Positions 169-6,568 of a DNA stretch of 64,000 nt are shown in pieces. How positions within the stretch are numbered: position 1 is the first letter of the stretch; each line of letters starts with the position of its first letter. The translations under genes and the position numbers were made by a program. The notes under the pieces were generated by a model. That model searched no databases, was not told where the DNA came from, and saw only the letters and a program-made list of their open reading frames with translations. Origin of the DNA: Dehalococcoidia bacterium (GTDB lineage Bacteria; Chloroflexota; Dehalococcoidia; DSTF01; JACRBR01); contig JBBDXD010000014.1 in the NCBI GenBank assembly GCA_040902535.1, forward strand, positions 42,111 through 106,110, read 5' to 3'.

Positions 169-750
169 ATGAGTCGGATTAGGGATTTCTTCCGCCGCGT
201 GCGTGAGGAGCGCGGCATCACGGGTCTGGAGACCGCCATCGTCCTCATCGCGTTCGTAGTCGTTGCCGCCGTCTTCGCGTTCGTCGTGTTGAGCACGGGT
301 CTCTTCAGTTCGGAGCGGGGCAAGGAGACGGTGTACGCGGGCCTGCAGAAGACCCGTGGTTCCATGTCGCTCACGGGCGGCGTCATCGCCACGAGCGATG
401 GCACGGCAGTGACCAACCTGCAATTCGGGCTGACGCTCGCCGCCGGCGGCGACTCCGTTAACCTCGACCAGTCGGACGCCAACAACCGCACGGTCATCAG
501 CTACATCGACACGGCCGTGAACACGCCCGACATGACGTACGTGACCACGGAGGTCGTCGGCGACGCCGACGAGCTGCTGGAGGCCGGCGAGCTGGCGCAG
601 GTCGCCATCGACATGACCGCCGAGTGCGGCTGCACGATCAACGCGAACGAATCGTTCACGCTGGAGGTGAAGCCGCCGACCGGCTCGTACCTGGTCATCA
701 CGCGGACGACGCCCGCCTCGATGACCGAGACGATCGTCAACCTCAACTAA
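169..750 (+). CDS. arlB1: Archaellin 1 (archaeal-type flagellin, filament subunit)
   Basis: Major structural subunit of an archaellum filament, 193 aa. It opens with a charged class III (prepilin-like) leader of about 16 residues ending REERG, with predicted cleavage before ITGLE by a PibD/FlaK-type peptidase. A long hydrophobic assembly helix (ETAIVLIAFVVVAAVF) follows, then a beta-rich outer domain with archaellin landmarks: LLEAGE near residue 140, LEVKP, and RTTP near the C-terminus. The start is chosen at ATG 169 because AGGAGG lies at 156-161; an upstream extension of the frame adds only non-homologous sequence. The outer domain has a Cys-Gly-Cys motif and two N-x-S/T sequons (NRT, NES). 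A nearly identical N-terminal half occurs in the next gene. Assignment from the N-terminus is very secure; the rest is family inference. Confidence 0.95.
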   Translation: MSRIRDFFRRVREERGITGLETAIVLIAFVVVAAVFAFVVLSTGLFSSERGKETVYAGLQKTRGSMSLTGGVIATSDGTAVTNLQFGLTLAAGGDSVNLDQSDANNRTVISYIDTAVNTPDMTYVTTEVVGDADELLEAGELAQVAIDMTAECGCTINANESFTLEVKPPTGSYLVITRTTPASMTETIVNLN

Positions 751-770
751 GACCAGACGTCACGGATCAG

Positions 771-797
771 GAGGCCCCGCACGCGCGGGGCCTCTTG
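771..797 (+). terminator. Strong hairpin after archaellin 1
   Basis: A perfect 10-bp GC-rich stem (771-780 with 785-794, loop ACGC) lies 21 nt after the archaellin stop, followed by a short T-containing tract (TTGCT). It probably terminates most transcripts of the first archaellin, or protects its 3' end, separating its expression from the genes downstream. Confidence 0.75.
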
Positions 798-1154
798 CTG
801 TGCTCGCCGCGCCCGTGTGTCACGCAGGATTCGAGTAGGTGACCCCGCTGCGTGAAGTCGGGGGAATTCACCATGCGTTCTGGGGCGCCGCCACACGACC
901 CTTCAATTGGTACTGGACGTACCGACTGGGCAGAAGGCATGGACAGCCGCAAGCCCGGGCCCGACCGCCACTCCCAACTGAGGCGGAGGGCGGACGGAAG
1001 CAAGGGAGTGCGCACCAGGCCTGCACGCGATCCGAGGACAGGCAAACGCGCTTCGTAAGGAGGTGGCGACGCGACAGTAGCAAACGACTGACCTCGATCG
1101 CGTCCCCATCGGAGGGACGAAGAACAATCGGACTTCCTTTCAAGGAGGAATGCA
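798..1154 (+). other. Long leader between the two archaellins
   Basis: About 357 nt without a convincing gene. It probably contains the promoter and 5' leader of archaellin 2, although I could not pick a clear -35/-10 pair. Two helices are visible. CACGCAG (821-827) can pair with CTGCGTG (848-854). GGTGACCCCG (838-847) can pair with CGGGG (859-863) plus TCACC (868-872). The second helix encloses one arm of the first, so they form either a pseudoknot or alternative folds. An open frame at 852-1058 is Arg/Pro-rich, resembles nothing and is left out. A second purine-rich GGAGG occurs at about 1060, away from any start. Confidence 0.4.
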
Positions 1155-1739
1155 ATGAAGCGGTTTATGGAGTCCTTTCGCCGCGGGAGCGAAGAGCGCG
1201 GCATCACCGGTCTTGAGACGGCCATCGTCCTGATCGCGTTCGTCGTCGTCGCGGCCGTGTTCGCGTTCGTCGTCCTGAGCACCGGTCTCTTCAGCTCCGA
1301 GCGGGGCAAGGAGACGGTCTACGCGGGCCTGCAGAAGACCCGCGGCTCAATGTCGCTCACCGGTGGCGTGATCGCGACATCCAACGGTACGGCGATCACG
1401 GACCTCTCGTTTGGTCTGACGCTCGCGGCCGGCGGCGACTCGGTCAACCTGGACCAGAGCGACGCGAACAACCGCACGGTGATCGCGTACATCGACACAG
1501 CCGTGACGGACAATGACCTGACGTACACGACGACGGAAGTGGTCGGCGACGCGGACGAGCTGCTCGAAGCAGGCGAGCTCGCACAGATCGACATCGACCT
1601 GGCGACAGCCTGCCCGACGTGTACTGTCGGCGCGAACGAACAGTTCACGCTCGAAGTGAAGCCACCGTCCGGTTCGTACCTGGTGATCTCGCGGACGACG
1701 CCTGCGTCGATCGCGGAGACGATCATCAACCTGAACTAA
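1155..1739 (+). CDS. arlB2: Archaellin 2 (archaeal-type flagellin, filament subunit)
   Basis: Second archaellin, 194 aa. A 16-residue leader ending SEERG is followed by the same ITGLE-type assembly helix as archaellin 1. From that helix through about residue 75 the two proteins are almost identical, while synonymous positions and the outer domain have diverged, so this is an old tandem duplication under selection. AGGAGG at 1143-1148 fixes ATG 1155. The outer domain carries a Cys-Pro-Thr-Cys motif where archaellin 1 has Cys-Gly-Cys, which could give a filament-surface disulfide or metal site (inference). The conserved LLEAGE, LEVKP and RTTP elements are kept. In archaea with several archaellins, minor ones often form the hook-proximal segment; which is major here cannot be told. 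Confidence 0.95.
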   Translation: MKRFMESFRRGSEERGITGLETAIVLIAFVVVAAVFAFVVLSTGLFSSERGKETVYAGLQKTRGSMSLTGGVIATSNGTAITDLSFGLTLAAGGDSVNLDQSDANNRTVIAYIDTAVTDNDLTYTTTEVVGDADELLEAGELAQIDIDLATACPTCTVGANEQFTLEVKPPSGSYLVISRTTPASIAETIINLN

Positions 1740-1742
1740 CGG

Positions 1743-1792
1743 GACTCGCGCTCGAGTCTCACGGGCGGCCGCTCTTCGCAGGGCGGCCGCCC
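1743..1792 (+). terminator. Paired hairpins after archaellin 2
   Basis: Two hairpins follow the archaellin 2 stop: GACTCG/CGAGTC (1743-1748 with 1753-1758) and an 8-bp stem GGGCGGCC/GGCCGCCC (1763-1770 with 1785-1792). There is no T tract, so this looks like an attenuating or RNA-stabilising element rather than a full terminator. It would let limited transcription reach the machinery genes. Confidence 0.5.
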
Positions 1793-1825
1793 ACCTGAGC
1801 AACCCACGCGAAAGGCGGAGTGCCG

Positions 1826-2491
1826 GTGGAACCCCAGCAGTTGGCCACGAAGGTCACACAGCTCGAGTCACGGGTCGCCACGCTCGAAGATGAAGGCAAG
1901 ATCATCAAGGGCGAGGTCAAGCAGATCCTGACCGAGATCCGCAGCGCGATCCTCGTGCGGGAGAACCCGTTCGAGATGGAGAACGCGCGCGGCATGGCGG
2001 CCGGCGGGACAACCCACGTCATTTCAACAGCACCCTCCGCCACGAAGGTCGAACTCGTGATGCCGTCCGCGCCGGAGCCTGCACCCGTCGCTGAGCCCCA
2101 GCCGGAATTTGAGCCGGCGCCGGCCCGCACCCCGTACATCCCCGAGCCCTCGAAGGAGCCTGTGATGTTAAGGCCGCAGGCGCACATCGCGCCGTCCGAG
2201 CCGGATCGACCGCAGTGGAGCCTGCTGACCGTCGCAGGGCTATCGGCGTGGGCGGAAGAAGCCATGCGCCGCCTGGGTCCGCTGCGATTGGAGATCTTGC
2301 TGGACTTGTGCGAGGCCGCCGGCCACCTGACACCCGACGCGCGGACCGCACTTTCGCGCATAACGGAAATGGATACGGCCGAACCGGCGCAGGCGCCTTC
2401 CACCAACGATACGGTCGTCATTCTGCGGCAGCTCGAAGCGCTCGTGAACGACGATCAGGACTACGGCTCGCGACTGCAGCGCCACGCATAG
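1826..2491 (+). CDS. Archaellum accessory protein, ArlC-like coiled coil plus ArlD/E-like domain
   Basis: About 221 aa in two parts. Residues 5-50 form a coiled coil with heptads, ending in an ENPF motif like the end of the ArlC coiled-coil region. A Pro/Glu/Ala-rich linker follows. Residues of about 135-180 (WSLLTVAGLSAWAEEAMRRL then LLDLCEAAGHLTP) resemble the ArlD/E domain pattern of a Trp-containing helix, LxxLLDxY and GWIs. In euryarchaea, ArlC/D/E form the cytoplasmic ring that couples the motor to chemotaxis; here one protein may do that job (inference). GTG 1826 is preferred because AAGGCGGAG then has normal spacing; GTG 1820 in the same frame is possible. It lies between the archaellins and arlG. 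The family call rests on motif resemblance. Confidence 0.7.
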   Translation: MEPQQLATKVTQLESRVATLEDEGKIIKGEVKQILTEIRSAILVRENPFEMENARGMAAGGTTHVISTAPSATKVELVMPSAPEPAPVAEPQPEFEPAPARTPYIPEPSKEPVMLRPQAHIAPSEPDRPQWSLLTVAGLSAWAEEAMRRLGPLRLEILLDLCEAAGHLTPDARTALSRITEMDTAEPAQAPSTNDTVVILRQLEALVNDDQDYGSRLQRHA

Positions 2492-2533
2492 CCGAACGAG
2501 GGAACGCGCGGCAAACGCTGAAGGAGTGGCGTC

Positions 2534-3010
2534 ATCGACAAGGCAATCACGACCATCATGCTGACGATCGCGGCGATCGTAGCGATCGTCGCGGTCGTGA
2601 ACGCCGTGCTGCCGTCCGTCAGCAGGACGAGCGGCGCGTTGATCTCCGCGTCCAACGTCGTGGAGGACCGTATTTCGAGCCAGATCGAGATCGTACACGC
2701 AACGGGACAAGACGCCGACCCGGACGCCGAAGTGTGGGTAAAGAACACCGGCTCATCGACGTTGGCGGCGGTCGACCGCGTCGATGTCTTCTTCGGGCCG
2801 GACGGCGACTTTCAGCGCATCCCGCAGGGTGACCCGGGTTGCACAGCGCCTTGCTGGGAGTACGAGATCGAGAACGCCGCAAGCTGGGAGCCGACGGCCA
2901 CGCTGCACATCACCGTGCACGCGGACACCAACCTGGCGACTGGCACCACGTACTACGTGAAGGTGGTGACCCCGAACGGCATCGCCAATTCAAAGTTCTT
3001 CACGGTCTAG
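2534..3010 (+). CDS. arlG: Archaellum stator protein ArlG, probable ATC start
   Basis: About 158 aa with an N-terminal hydrophobic helix and an extracytoplasmic beta domain typical of ArlG: a WVKNTGSS-type strand, DVFFGPDGDF, a WEYEIEN segment, and VKVVTPNG near the end. ArlG forms a filament at the archaellum base and, with ArlF, contacts the S-layer in archaea. The first ATG in frame is 2558, but it has no ribosome site and would remove the start of the membrane helix. AAGGAG at 2521-2526 sits 7 nt before an in-frame ATC at 2534, giving an N-terminus (IDKAITTIM...) of the usual ArlG pattern. I therefore prefer ATC 2534, with moderate confidence in the start. It is followed by arlF after 9 nt. 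Confidence 0.85.
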   Translation: MDKAITTIMLTIAAIVAIVAVVNAVLPSVSRTSGALISASNVVEDRISSQIEIVHATGQDADPDAEVWVKNTGSSTLAAVDRVDVFFGPDGDFQRIPQGDPGCTAPCWEYEIENAASWEPTATLHITVHADTNLATGTTYYVKVVTPNGIANSKFFTV

Positions 3011-3019
3011 GGGCGCGAC

Positions 3020-3529
3020 GTGGAAAACGGACTGCCCGCGCTGATGCTCGCCGCGATGATGATGCTGGCCACCGTGCTGATGGCGCGCGGCGGCTTCCTG
3101 GGGGCGGATGCGATCGGCATGTCGCTGCGTGAATCCGAAGGCCGATACGCGGAGCAGAGCCGCACCGGGCTTACCGTCACGGGCAGCAGCATCGACGGTA
3201 CCGGCGCCAACGTGACGTTGACGGTGCGGAACGACGGCCAAACGCCGATTGCCGACTTCGCGGGCATGGATGTGGTGGTGCAGTACTTCGACGAGAACAC
3301 AGACCGTTACGACAGGTGGGTGCCATACACGGGCGGCGCTCTGGCATCGAACACGTGGACTGCGGGGAACTTCCAGGACGATGTCTTCGAGCCGGGCATC
3401 CTCAACAGCGGCGAGTCGATGGACATCACCGTGCGGGTGAACCCGGTCGTCGGCGCGGGCAGCGTTAACTGGGCGATCGTCGGCACGGATAAGGGCGTGA
3501 CGGTGCAGACGTACTTCGACGGGCCATAG
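3020..3529 (+). CDS. arlF: Archaellum stator protein ArlF
   Basis: 169 aa. An N-terminal membrane helix (about residues 5-25) is followed by a beta-sandwich with the ArlF pattern: LTVRNDGQTPIADF, MDVVVQYFDE, a Trp-containing strand (NTWTAGNF), then a PGILNSGESMDI turn. In archaea ArlF binds the S-layer and anchors the motor as a stator; many Chloroflexota also have S-layers, so the same use is plausible. The start is GTG 3020 with only a weak purine stretch before it. Gene order is G then F, the order seen in Sulfolobus rather than the euryarchaeal F then G. arlJ follows after 8 nt, with no arlH or arlI between. Confidence 0.85.
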   Translation: MENGLPALMLAAMMMLATVLMARGGFLGADAIGMSLRESEGRYAEQSRTGLTVTGSSIDGTGANVTLTVRNDGQTPIADFAGMDVVVQYFDENTDRYDRWVPYTGGALASNTWTAGNFQDDVFEPGILNSGESMDITVRVNPVVGAGSVNWAIVGTDKGVTVQTYFDGP

Positions 3530-3537
3530 GGGCGAGC

Positions 3538-5130
3538 ATGGCGATCTACACAAAGCTCATGCCGGCGTTCCTGAAGAAGCCCCCGGGCCGCAGCGAAGCC
3601 GTCGAAGAGGCGGCGAACTGGCAGCGGTCCACGTCCCTGTTCGCCCCGGCGCCGATGGAGTACGACCTGATTACGCAGCTCACGTATATGTCGGCGCTGG
3701 CTACCGCGAACGTCGGCCGCGAGCACCTGTTCGAGAAGACGGCCGGATTGGGCTATTCAACGTCCGGCTACTTCCACCGCGTCCATTTGGTCGCGCAGCG
3801 CCTCAACTACGACTACGCGCGCGCATGCCAACTGGTCGCCGACGCGACGGAGAACAGCGTCGTCAACAGCCTGCTGCTTCGATTCGCGAGTTCGCTGTCA
3901 TCGGGCGAGCCAGAATCTGTCTTCCTGGCGCGCGAGACAGAGATCCAGATCGAACAGTACTCCCGCAAGTACGAACGCGACCTGGAGTCGCTCAAGAAGT
4001 GGACCGATGCGTACGTCGCCCTGATGGTGTCCGTCACACTGGTCGTCGTCGTCTCGATGGTATCGATGATGATCTACAGCGTCGGCACCGTCTTCATCCT
4101 GGGGCTGGCGACTATGATGATCGGCGTCGCGGCGCTCGGTGACTGGATCATCTACCGCACGGCGCCGGTTGAGCCGAAGACGCATAAACGTGCCGTCCGG
4201 TCCCGCACCCAGGATCAGATGTTCGCGATCGCGAAGGTGTTATTGCCCGCCGGCGCCGCGCTCGGCGCGATCGTGGGCCTTGTCTTCAGCATCGGCGCGG
4301 GGATGGTCGCCGCAGGCATCACGATCGCACCGGTCGGCGTGCTGGCGTTTATGGACGATCGGCGCATCGACCAGCAGGACCGCGACATCTCGACGTTCCT
4401 GCGGTCACTGGGCTCCGTCGTCGGCGCGATCGGGACGACCGTCACCGAGGGCATGGACCGTCTCAATCAACGGTCCCTGGCATCGCTCGAACAAGGCGTC
4501 CGGCGTCTGCATGTGAGGCTGCGGAACGGCATTCGCCCTGACTACTGCTGGGACCGCTTCATCTCCGAAACGGGCAGTGAGCTTGTCGACCGTTCCGTCA
4601 GCACGTTCTGGGACACGACCAAAGTCGGCGGTGACCCTGACCAGATCGGATTCCTTTCATCGCTGTTCGCGCTGAAAATCTCGTTGATGCGAGAGAACCG
4701 CAAACTCGTATCACAGACGTTCATGTACTTGATGCTGCCCCTGCACACAGTGCTCGTGGGCATTCTGCTCTTCGTAACGGAAGTCATGGTCGTCTTCGCG
4801 CAACAACTCAACAACATCCAGACGCAAGCGCTGACCAATACCGACCCGACGACGACGGGCGGCATCGACGTCACGAACGTGCTGGCGTTCGCTTCTCCAA
4901 ACGTCGCGTTCCTGCGTGGCTTTGCCTTGATCGTGACCATCTTTCTGACGGTCGTCGATACGTGGTCGCCGCACGTCACAGCGGGCGGGCACCACCACAA
5001 GGTGTGGGGGTATGCGGCCGTGATGCTCGTCATCTCAGGTGTGCTGCTGTTGGGCGTGCCGGCGATGGTACAGGGCTTGTTCAGCAGCGTTTCCGGTGGG
5101 TTGGAAGAAAACGACATCAGTACCGGTTAA
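3538..5130 (+). CDS. arlJ: Archaellum membrane platform protein ArlJ
   Basis: 530 aa, the usual length for ArlJ, the inner-membrane platform on which the ATPase ArlI acts to assemble and rotate the filament. A cytoplasmic N-terminus is followed by two T2SF-type helical domains (about 48-155 and 285-395) and membrane segments near 158-180, 183-206, 230-250, 255-272, 395-422, 455-475 and 490-512. The positively charged cytoplasmic loops expected to contact ArlI are present. A GGHHHK loop near residue 484 is unusual. ATG 3538 has AGGGGCGAG before it. ArlJ is homologous to PilC/TadC, but the paired T2SF domains, the length and its place after arlG/arlF favour ArlJ. Its partner ArlI is missing from the window. 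Confidence 0.93.
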   Translation: MAIYTKLMPAFLKKPPGRSEAVEEAANWQRSTSLFAPAPMEYDLITQLTYMSALATANVGREHLFEKTAGLGYSTSGYFHRVHLVAQRLNYDYARACQLVADATENSVVNSLLLRFASSLSSGEPESVFLARETEIQIEQYSRKYERDLESLKKWTDAYVALMVSVTLVVVVSMVSMMIYSVGTVFILGLATMMIGVAALGDWIIYRTAPVEPKTHKRAVRSRTQDQMFAIAKVLLPAGAALGAIVGLVFSIGAGMVAAGITIAPVGVLAFMDDRRIDQQDRDISTFLRSLGSVVGAIGTTVTEGMDRLNQRSLASLEQGVRRLHVRLRNGIRPDYCWDRFISETGSELVDRSVSTFWDTTKVGGDPDQIGFLSSLFALKISLMRENRKLVSQTFMYLMLPLHTVLVGILLFVTEVMVVFAQQLNNIQTQALTNTDPTTTGGIDVTNVLAFASPNVAFLRGFALIVTIFLTVVDTWSPHVTAGGHHHKVWGYAAVMLVISGVLLLGVPAMVQGLFSSVSGGLEENDISTG

Positions 5131-5143
5131 CTAGGGAGGTGAT

Positions 5144-5545
5144 ATGAAGAACTTCTTCAAGAAGGATCAACCGGACGAACGTGCTCTGGAGCTGCCGCTC
5201 CGCGAAGCGCGCGAGTTTGTGCCGTCCTCAGCACAGTCGCCCGATGCACGTCGCTTCAGTCTGTTCAACCCGGAAGAGGAAATCGATGAGTCGAACGACG
5301 AGGACCTGGTGTTTCTGGCCTCGTTGGTCGATGCAACAAACGCGCCGGTGAAGAAGCCGGAAGCACAGCCACAGCCTGCTGAGCAACGCATGGACGATAT
5401 GGAAGTGTTCCGCGAAAGTGCGGCGCTTCGACAGCGGACCGAGATCGCCAAGCAACTGAAGGTCGACAACGTGGACATGGGGGATCTGCTGGAAGATCTC
5501 CAGACCACCCGGGCGGCGCTCCAGCACCGGCGAAAGGCCGCGTAG
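5144..5545 (+). CDS. Small acidic soluble protein of the archaellum operon, unknown function
   Basis: 133 aa, not recognised. It starts 13 nt after arlJ behind one of the best ribosome sites in the window (GGGAGGTGAT at 5134-5143), so it is clearly translated, and it ends 3 nt before the amidase gene. The protein has no signal peptide or membrane segment. It has an acidic middle (EEEIDESNDEDL near residues 45-55), a Pro/Gln-rich linker and a predicted helical C-terminal third (about 85-130) rich in Leu and Arg. Position and composition suggest a cytoplasmic adaptor for ArlJ, the ATPase or the following amidase, but this is inference only. Confidence 0.8.
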   Translation: MKNFFKKDQPDERALELPLREAREFVPSSAQSPDARRFSLFNPEEEIDESNDEDLVFLASLVDATNAPVKKPEAQPQPAEQRMDDMEVFRESAALRQRTEIAKQLKVDNVDMGDLLEDLQTTRAALQHRRKAA

Positions 5546-5548
5546 CGG

Positions 5549-6568
5549 ATGCCACGATGGCTGCTTGGCTCACTCGTCGCCTTCATGGCGCTTTGGACGG
5601 TCTTCACCGCTGTTGCCGGCTGGTATGCGTGGCAGAGCACGAACTCTTCGAACGCGTCCGCACAGGACGGGCCGGCTGCGTCTGATGACGCTGGCCCTGG
5701 CGGCGAACGCAGTTCAGACACCACTGCTGCCGGCGTGGAGCCGGCCATGCCGGCGAGCCTGACTGCGACGCCACAGGAGACGCCGGCGCGCGCGGTCGGC
5801 ATCGCGCGGCCGGTGCCTCGCGAGGCGACCTCCGGCGGCTTTGACGAGCGGGTGCGGCCGGCGAACGGAGAGGTGACGCGCAAACGGGCGGCGGCCGGGC
5901 GTTCGTCACTGGGCGTTGTCGTGCTCGATCCGGGCCACGGCCGCGGCGATCCGGGCGCAGTGCATTATCCTTCCGACGGCTCCGGCCGCTACGACGTCAC
6001 TGAGGCGCAGTCGAACCAGCTCAACGCGGAGTTGATCCGCGTCGAACTCATCGCTCTCGGCTACGACGTGTATCTCACACGTGAAGGCGCCGGCCGCGGC
6101 CCCGGCGGCCCACTGCCGCTGCAGTTCATCGCCAACGACCTGTATTGGCGGGTGCAGCTCGCGTCCGCCGTCGATGCGGATGTGTATCTCGCGATCCACG
6201 GCAACGGCGCCGTCGTCAAGTCGATCAGCGGGCCCGAGACGTGGTATTGCGGCAAGCACGAGGAGGGCGCCGCGAACGAGCGGCTCGCTTCGCTCGTGCA
6301 ACAGGCGATGATGGACGCGCTGCACGAGTATGGTTACGCCCCGCCAGATCGCGGCATCAAGGAAGACGCGCAGAGCCACCATTCCGGCGACTTCTGCCAG
6401 TTCGTAGTGACGCGGGAGACAGAGGTGCCGGCGGCGCTACTCGAGTTCCTATTCCTCTCGAACGACGCCGATGCGAGCGTGCTCGTCGACCCGCGTTCGC
6501 ATGAACTGCTGGCGCGGCACGTCGCAGCGGCCATCGACGTATTTATGCGGGAGCGCCGCGGTGAGTAG
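5549..6568 (+). CDS. Membrane-anchored N-acetylmuramoyl-L-alanine amidase (Amidase_3)
   Basis: 339 aa. One N-terminal membrane helix (about 5-27), a low-complexity Ser/Ala/Pro linker to about residue 118, then an Amidase_3 zinc hydrolase. The domain begins VVVLDPGHGRGDPGA and has the metal ligands His130, Glu152 (in TEAQSN) and His217 (in AIHGNG), with catalytic Glu299 (LLEFLFLSN). Such enzymes cleave the amide bond between muramic acid and the stem peptide. The N-terminal anchor would hold it on the outer face of the membrane. It follows the acidic protein by 3 nt and so belongs to the archaellum operon. A role in opening peptidoglycan for the filament is inferred; general cell-wall turnover is the alternative. 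Confidence 0.88.
   Translation: MPRWLLGSLVAFMALWTVFTAVAGWYAWQSTNSSNASAQDGPAASDDAGPGGERSSDTTAAGVEPAMPASLTATPQETPARAVGIARPVPREATSGGFDERVRPANGEVTRKRAAAGRSSLGVVVLDPGHGRGDPGAVHYPSDGSGRYDVTEAQSNQLNAELIRVELIALGYDVYLTREGAGRGPGGPLPLQFIANDLYWRVQLASAVDADVYLAIHGNGAVVKSISGPETWYCGKHEEGAANERLASLVQQAMMDALHEYGYAPPDRGIKEDAQSHHSGDFCQFVVTRETEVPAALLEFLFLSNDADASVLVDPRSHELLARHVAAAIDVFMRERRGE

What the first reader, a model, noticed from the sequence alone, without database searches (positions are those of the whole stretch)
169..5130. Archaellum (archaeal-type motility) operon in a bacterium
Two archaellins with class III leaders, ArlD/E-like coiled-coil protein, ArlG, ArlF and ArlJ lie in one direction with short gaps, in a window whose other genes (S1, ClpC, HemW, PcrA) are bacterial. 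Seen directly: archaellin N-termini, ArlG/F strand patterns, an ArlJ-size platform. Known: archaella have been reported in Chloroflexota. Inferred: a horizontally acquired, still-functional motility system.
Basis: partly seen in the sequence, partly recalled or inferred. Interest (0 to 1): 0.75.

Follow-up and report, generated by a model that had tools for sequence, protein, structure and literature searches.

The report
Split archaellum motility genes in Chloroflexota
This Chloroflexota bacterium carries an archaeal-type rotary swimming filament, a kind already shown to work in a relative, but here its motor genes have moved elsewhere in the genome, no chemotaxis receptors were found, and its stator gene appears to start with an unusual, long-conserved start codon.

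Summary
The window encodes two archaellins (two more lie just upstream), an ArlCDE-position coiled-coil protein, ArlG, ArlF and ArlJ on one strand. ArlJ scores 450 bits against the archaellum profile and only 20 against T2SSF. The ArlF model's top fold match is Sulfolobus FlaF. The kind is already published (SAR202 2023; Litorilinea aerophila 2025, with structure and swimming), so the headline is known.

New here:
(1) The operon has no arlH or arlI. Both lie on another contig, at least 176 kb away. All five genomes of this family in which both arlI and arlJ were found are split. All 35 arlI/arlJ pairs outside the family are same-strand within 2.2 kb. Trees show the parts co-descend.
(2) arlG has no usable ATG, GTG or TTG start. 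It most likely starts at ATC (2534), 7 nt after a Shine-Dalgarno. ATC/ATT/ATA occupies this position in 17 loci, position-equivalent to ATG/GTG/TTG in other lineages. This resembles infC and implies throttled stator translation.
(3) No chemoreceptor, CheA/CheW or flagellar FlhA was found.
(4) A cell-wall amidase gene closes the operon in this and a sister family.

Function (rotation, start-codon use) is inferred, not tested.

The parts
169..750 (+). arlB (archaellin), third of four in the array
   Evidence: PF01917 E 2.3e-27; class III leader; closest solved structure is the L. aerophila archaellin 9i5h/9sie (E 9e-34)
1155..1739 (+). arlB (archaellin), fourth of the array; 85% identical to the third
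   Evidence: PF01917 E 2.8e-27; identity
1820..2491 (+). coiled coil + Pro-rich linker + C-terminal helical domain; stands in the arlCDE position (candidate ArlCDE counterpart, not proven)
   Evidence: homologues between arlB and arlG, or between arlJ and arlH, in 27 class-wide loci; no Pfam/NCBIfam hit; AlphaFold model shows helix 5-47 and a helical C-terminal domain 135-222, no PDB match
2534..3010 (+). arlG (stator), 158 aa, most likely with non-canonical ATC start; first ATG only at 2558
   Evidence: NCBIfam ArlG E 3.6e-11; start analysis
2521..2533 (+). Shine-Dalgarno AAGGAG and 7-nt spacer before the ATC start of arlG
   Evidence: SD core 6-8 nt before an ATC/ATT/ATA codon in 15 of 17 loci
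3020..3529 (+). arlF (stator), GTG start
   Evidence: NCBIfam ArlF E 0.0018; AlphaFold model (pLDDT 87.5) best PDB match 4p94 S. acidocaldarius FlaF, E 5e-10, rmsd 1.3 A, TM(target) 0.84-0.86
3538..5130 (+). arlJ (membrane platform), 530 aa
   Evidence: NCBIfam ArlJ NF004703 E 1e-134, 450 bits
5144..5545 (+). small acidic ORF of 133 aa, conserved downstream of arlJ in this family; function unknown
   Evidence: no Pfam/NCBIfam hit
5549..6568 (+). membrane-anchored N-acetylmuramoyl-L-alanine amidase (Amidase_3), last clear gene of the operon
   Evidence: PF01520 E 2.2e-29; H130, E152, H217, E299 invariant in 7 orthologues, all downstream of arlJ

Best explanation
This is the filament, stator and platform half of an archaellum inherited within the class Dehalococcoidia (Chloroflexota). 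Archaellins carry class III leaders and are presumably cleaved by the genome's single type IV leader peptidase (C9:99324). ArlJ and the hexameric ATPase ArlI, with its KaiC-like partner ArlH, assemble the filament and then turn it. ArlF and ArlG fix the motor to the envelope. In this family the arlHI pair left the operon by rearrangement, so the ATPase/regulator module and the filament/stator/platform module must be co-expressed in trans. arlG is probably translated from an AUC codon behind a good Shine-Dalgarno, a weak, IF3-sensitive start that would keep the stator scarce relative to filament subunits. No chemoreceptor or CheA/CheW protein was found in the genome, so any swimming would be controlled through expression (an adjacent NarL-type regulator and kinase-like protein) rather than by a classical chemotaxis array. 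The amidase at the operon's end most likely opens peptidoglycan where the machine crosses the wall. Shown: gene identities, the split, conservation, co-descent, absence of MCP/CheW/FlhA hits. Inferred: rotation, co-expression, low stator translation, the amidase's role.
For: Gene identity. Location of arlH/arlI on C18, at least 176 kb from arlJ whatever the contig order. Split in all 5 family members with both genes, none of 35 arlI/arlJ pairs elsewhere. In G003 the pair is still on the same contig, inverted, 6.4 kb away. Co-descent: ArlI and ArlJ trees each give the family 100/100 and place it with the other families of the order. ATH start of arlG: clustered on the ArlJ tree (3 changes; shuffled mean 10.3). 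No MCP, no CheW/CheA, no FlhA, with controls ringing as expected. Amidase synteny and active-site conservation. Precedent for function: L. aerophila swims with its archaellum (PMC12488501). Precedent for conserved AUA/AUU starts with strong SD that hold expression low: PMC13009471.
Against: Nothing was expressed or seen. Archaellum-bearing SAR202 isolates are described as non-motile with no archaella observed (PMC10444878), so genes do not guarantee motility. The genome is about 96% complete, so a missing chemotaxis cluster cannot be fully excluded from one genome, though it was also not found in any of 8 family members. The coiled-coil protein fails ArlD/E profiles. In one family member (G004) the amidase is not next to arlJ.
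Confidence: 0.85

Rival explanations
1. The locus builds an archaeal-type non-rotating pilus (adhesion or DNA uptake) rather than a swimming archaellum.
For: No chemotaxis receptors or CheA/CheW found. Some archaellated SAR202 isolates are described as non-motile. The authors of PMC12488501 report a second, pilus-clade transfer into Anaerolineales.
Against: ArlF, ArlG and ArlH are archaellum-specific and all present. ArlI passes the archaellum-motor equivalog cut-off and scores far lower on the bindosome ATPase (629 against 181 bits). Archaellins, not pilins.
Confidence: 0.12
2. The split is an artefact: mis-binned or mis-assembled contigs, or arlHI belong to another organism in the sample.
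For: The genome is in 28 contigs, unnamed, and a 100-N scaffold gap lies inside the archaellin array.
Against: Five genomes of four genera show the same separation. The arlHI neighbour (a CoA-binding/acyl-CoA synthetase-like gene) is conserved in three genera. ArlI and ArlJ trees agree. arlHI lies 130 kb or more inside its contig.
Confidence: 0.03
3. arlG starts at the internal ATG (2558), 8 codons downstream, and the conserved ATH codon is just the last residue of a leader or chance.
For: Gene callers would choose ATG 2558. An ATG exists near there in this genome and several relatives.
Against: G002, G003, G008, G009, G016 and G047 have no such ATG. The codons between change mostly synonymously. 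The SD sits about 7 nt before ATH in 15 of 17 loci. The same codon is ATG, GTG or TTG in other families. Starting at 2558 drops conserved residues of the membrane helix.
Confidence: 0.07

Closest known systems
Archaellum of Litorilinea aerophila (Chloroflexota; PMC12488501, PDB 9SIE/9SII/9I5H)
   Same: Archaellins (best PDB match), ArlG before ArlF (arl2 order), ArlJ/I/H, no bacterial flagellum
   Different: There and in the other Chloroflexota loci described all genes remain in one locus; here arlHI is unlinked. L. aerophila has a cheY and pilN/pilO-LysM nearby; here no MCP/CheW was found, and an amidase gene ends the operon. I saw no mention of the arlG start codon in the parts of that paper I read.
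SAR202 archaellum cluster (Candidatus Lucifugimonas, PMC10444878)
   Same: Same class; several tandem archaellins plus scattered extra archaellin genes; Peptidase_A24 elsewhere
   Different: flaGFHIJ are contiguous there
Euryarchaeal arl2 cluster (for example Archaeoglobus)
   Same: arlB - arlCDE position - arlG - arlF ... arlJ order
   Different: arlCDE is replaced by a single protein without detectable PF04659 similarity; HI removed from between F and J
infC/ccpN-type non-canonical AUA/AUU starts (PMC13009471, PMC9410913)
   Same: Conserved ATH start behind a strong SD, keeping expression low and IF3-dependent
   Different: Here on a stator gene of a rotary machine, across six numbered families plus three SAR202-like MAGs; no expression data

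Membership tests
Archaellum | Archaellin filament subunits with class III leader | tested here: met
Archaellum | ArlJ platform protein | tested here: met
   NF004703 1e-134 over almost full length; 450 bits, below the 570-bit equivalog cut-off, as are all 40 class genomes with a hit
Archaellum | ArlI motor ATPase | tested here: met
   NF058587 629 bits, cut-off 550; on another contig
Archaellum | ArlH KaiC-like regulator | tested here: met
   NF004723 270 bits, cut-off 194; ArlH NF052589 199 bits, cut-off 215
Archaellum | ArlF and ArlG stator proteins | tested here: met
   ArlG E 3.6e-11 (below the equivalog cut-off); ArlF by fold to 4p94
Archaellum | ArlCDE (or ArlX) adaptor | tested here: inconclusive
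   Right position and class-wide conservation; no PF04659 hit in 18 genomes of the order, no profile hit, no fold match
Archaellum | Class III signal/prepilin peptidase | tested here: met
   One Peptidase_A24 at C9:99324-99635; substrate not tested
Archaellum | ATP-driven rotation and swimming | not testable with these tools
   Shown for L. aerophila only (PMC12488501)
Single-locus Chloroflexota archaellum cluster as published | arlH, arlI and arlJ in one locus | tested here: not met
   arlJ on C14, arlHI on C18; family-wide
Tad or type IV pilus | ATPase and platform group with TadA/PilB and TadB/PilC | tested here: not met
   ArlI: TadA 160 bits against 629; ArlJ: T2SSF 20 bits against 450

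The most novel reading that the evidence does not exclude
The bacterial archaellum in much of Dehalococcoidia keeps its stator scarce through a deeply conserved non-AUG (AUC/AUU/AUA) start codon on arlG, making stator synthesis an IF3-sensitive checkpoint. In one family this comes with a motor module unlinked from the filament module and with no chemosensory array: a rotary motor run without classical chemotaxis.
Probability: 0.5. Interest if true: 0.65.

Novelty: new variant of a known kind. Interest (0 to 1): 0.5.

Why it matters
Bacterial archaella are a recent discovery, and how an archaeal motor was fitted into a peptidoglycan wall and bacterial regulation is open: PMC13319060 states that it is unknown how members lacking PilO/PilN anchor archaella. 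This lineage offers three testable handles: an amidase in the operon, a stator gene with a throttled start codon, and a natural separation of the ATPase module. It also shows archaellum genes kept where no MCP or CheA/CheW was found, so one can ask what steers such cells.

Tried and rejected
Pfam/NCBIfam identification of the coiled-coil protein as ArlD/E gave nothing, and its AlphaFold model has no PDB match. A plasmid search for archaeal ArlI outgroups returned only general secretion/CpaF ATPases and haloarchaeal type II/IV ATPases, so I made no archaeal-rooted tree and rely on the published one for the donor. The kinase-like protein upstream has no strong domain hit. The idea that arlHI was acquired separately was rejected by matching trees. 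The idea that the split is specific to this assembly was rejected by four other genomes. Weak similarity between the 133-aa ORF after arlJ and small ORFs after arlI in four relatives (E 1e-4 to 6e-6) was seen but is too weak to build on. In the tree the label 'f4' wrongly also covered families f41 and f44, because their names begin alike; the f1, f2 and f3 results are not affected.

Full report
OBSERVATION. The first 6.6 kb of the window hold an unbroken + strand series: archaellin (169-750), archaellin (1155-1739), a coiled-coil protein (1820-2491), ArlG, ArlF (3020-3529), ArlJ (3538-5130), a 133-aa ORF (5144-5545) and an Amidase_3 protein (5549-6568). From the second archaellin on, gaps are 3-80 nt. 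Archaellins score 97 bits on Arch_flagellin (cut-off 29.5). ArlJ scores 450 bits on the NCBIfam ArlJ profile and only 20 on T2SSF. ArlG hits the ArlG profile at 3.6e-11. ArlF is weak by sequence (E 0.0018), but its AlphaFold model (pLDDT 87.5) matches the crystal structure of S. acidocaldarius FlaF (4p94) first, at E 5e-10 and 1.3 A; FlaG and archaellins follow. The closest solved structure to the archaellins is that of L. aerophila (9i5h/9sie/9sii).

THE ARRAY BEGINS OUTSIDE THE WINDOW. The window is contig C14:42111-106110 of a 3.18-Mb, 28-contig, 96%-complete genome. Its first base follows a 100-N scaffold gap. Upstream lie two more archaellins (C14:40665, 41444), a NarL-type regulator on the opposite strand and a kinase-like protein. 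Two further archaellin-like genes are scattered at C14:1408 and C9:88355.

THE HOST. The host is therefore taken to be a Dehalococcoidia bacterium (Chloroflexota).

THE MOTOR GENES ARE ELSEWHERE. arlH and arlI are not in this operon. They form a two-gene unit on contig C18 (162.5-165.1 kb of 295.9 kb). ArlI scores 629 bits against the archaellum-motor equivalog (cut-off 550) and ArlH 270 bits against FlaH (cut-off 194). Given the contig lengths, the two loci are at least 176 kb apart in any contig order. Of 216 genomes of the class, 40 have ArlJ and 39 have ArlI. In all 35 arlI/arlJ pairs outside this family the two genes are on the same contig and strand within 2.2 kb. In all five family members where both were found they are apart: four on different contigs, and one (G003) on the same contig but inverted, with arlHI pointing away from the kinase-archaellin-GFJ unit. 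ArlI and ArlJ trees both make the family a 100/100 clade next to the other families of the order, whose operons still read G-F-H-I-J. So the pair was moved within a vertically inherited cluster. [quoted passage not shown]

A NON-CANONICAL START ON arlG. The first ATG in the arlG frame is at 2558, but the ArlG profile and the homologues extend about 8 residues further. Between the upstream in-frame stop and 2558 there is no ATG, GTG, TTG or CTG. There is a Shine-Dalgarno AAGGAG, seven bases, and then ATC GAC AAG GCA ATC (IDKAI). The equivalent codon is ATC, ATT or ATA in 17 loci: this family, three other families of the order, families f34 and f16, and three SAR202-like MAGs. It is ATG, GTG or TTG in other families of the class (MDKVL, VDKVI, LDKAI). 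The SD core ends 6-8 nt before the codon in 15 of the 17. Codons 2-8 vary mostly synonymously within the family. Several members lack the downstream ATG altogether. On the ArlJ tree the ATH state needs 3 changes against 10.3 for shuffled labels, so it is old and inherited. Conserved AUA/AUU starts with strong SDs are known for infC, ccpN and cvfC1, where they hold expression low (PMC13009471; E. coli infC, PMC9410913). A full-text search found no report of such a start in archaellum genes (titles and abstracts of two hits only, open-access library only). The start is predicted, not mapped.

NO CLASSICAL CHEMOTAXIS FOUND. MCP signalling domains and CheW domains, which also catch CheA, give no hit in this genome or in any of the 8 family members. 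In the order only G010 and G013 have them, both archaellated. FlhA is not found anywhere in the order. The adjacent NarL-type regulator stands divergent from the archaellins in several families. In this genome and G004 its receiver has Gly where the phosphoacceptor Asp should be, while sister-family members keep the Asp. It may therefore act without phosphorylation (inference).

AMIDASE. The Amidase_3 gene follows arlJ and the small ORF in this genome and in four other family members where that region was read (G001, G003, G006, G007; G004 is an exception), and it follows arlJ in both members of sister family f2; it was not seen in the other loci examined. The predicted zinc and catalytic residues H130, E152, H217 and E299 are invariant, and the N-terminus looks like a membrane anchor. 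PMC13319060 says it is unknown how Chloroflexota lacking PilN/PilO anchor archaella. A wall-opening enzyme in the operon is a plausible part of the answer, untested.

WHAT IS NOT SETTLED. The coiled-coil protein is the class-wide occupant of the arlCDE position but matches no ArlC/D/E profile and no solved fold. Rotation, co-expression of the two loci, translation from AUC and the amidase's role are inferences. SAR202 isolates with archaellum genes have been described as non-motile, so presence is not proof of swimming. The archaeal origin and donor group rest on the published tree, which I did not repeat.

VERDICT. A genuine bacterial archaellum of a published kind. The headline is known. The family-wide split, the conserved ATH start of arlG and the apparent absence of MCP/CheW make it a variant worth following.

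Noticed in passing
window 2521-2560: arlG most likely starts at ATC 2534 behind AAGGAG with a 7-nt spacer; an ATH codon holds this position in 17 loci of the class, and ATG/GTG/TTG in others.
   Followed up: yes
L008:16672-17943 (C14, upstream of the window): NarL-type regulator divergent from the archaellin array; its receiver has Gly in place of the phosphoacceptor Asp in this genome and G004, while the sister family keeps Asp.
   Followed up: partly
C14:1408-1899 (-) and C9:88355-88816 (-): Two solitary archaellin-like genes away from the operon; the C9 one is divergent (about 33-41% identical to the array) and lies just upstream of pheS.
   Followed up: partly
L072:7447-7938, L073:8012-8359, L078:10363-10842, L079:1217-1639: Small acidic ORFs directly downstream of arlI in relatives resemble weakly (E 1e-4 to 6e-6) the 133-aa ORF downstream of arlJ, so both half-operons may end in related small proteins.
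   Followed up: partly
L117, L120 and L119 (G111, G074, G069): Tandem duplicate arlI genes next to arlJ in some other Dehalococcoidia families, with an in-frame stop inside one matched copy in two of them.
   Followed up: no
C14:42010-42110: A 100-N scaffold gap inside the archaellin array immediately before the window, probably caused by near-identical archaellin genes; the true copy number may be higher than four.
   Followed up: no
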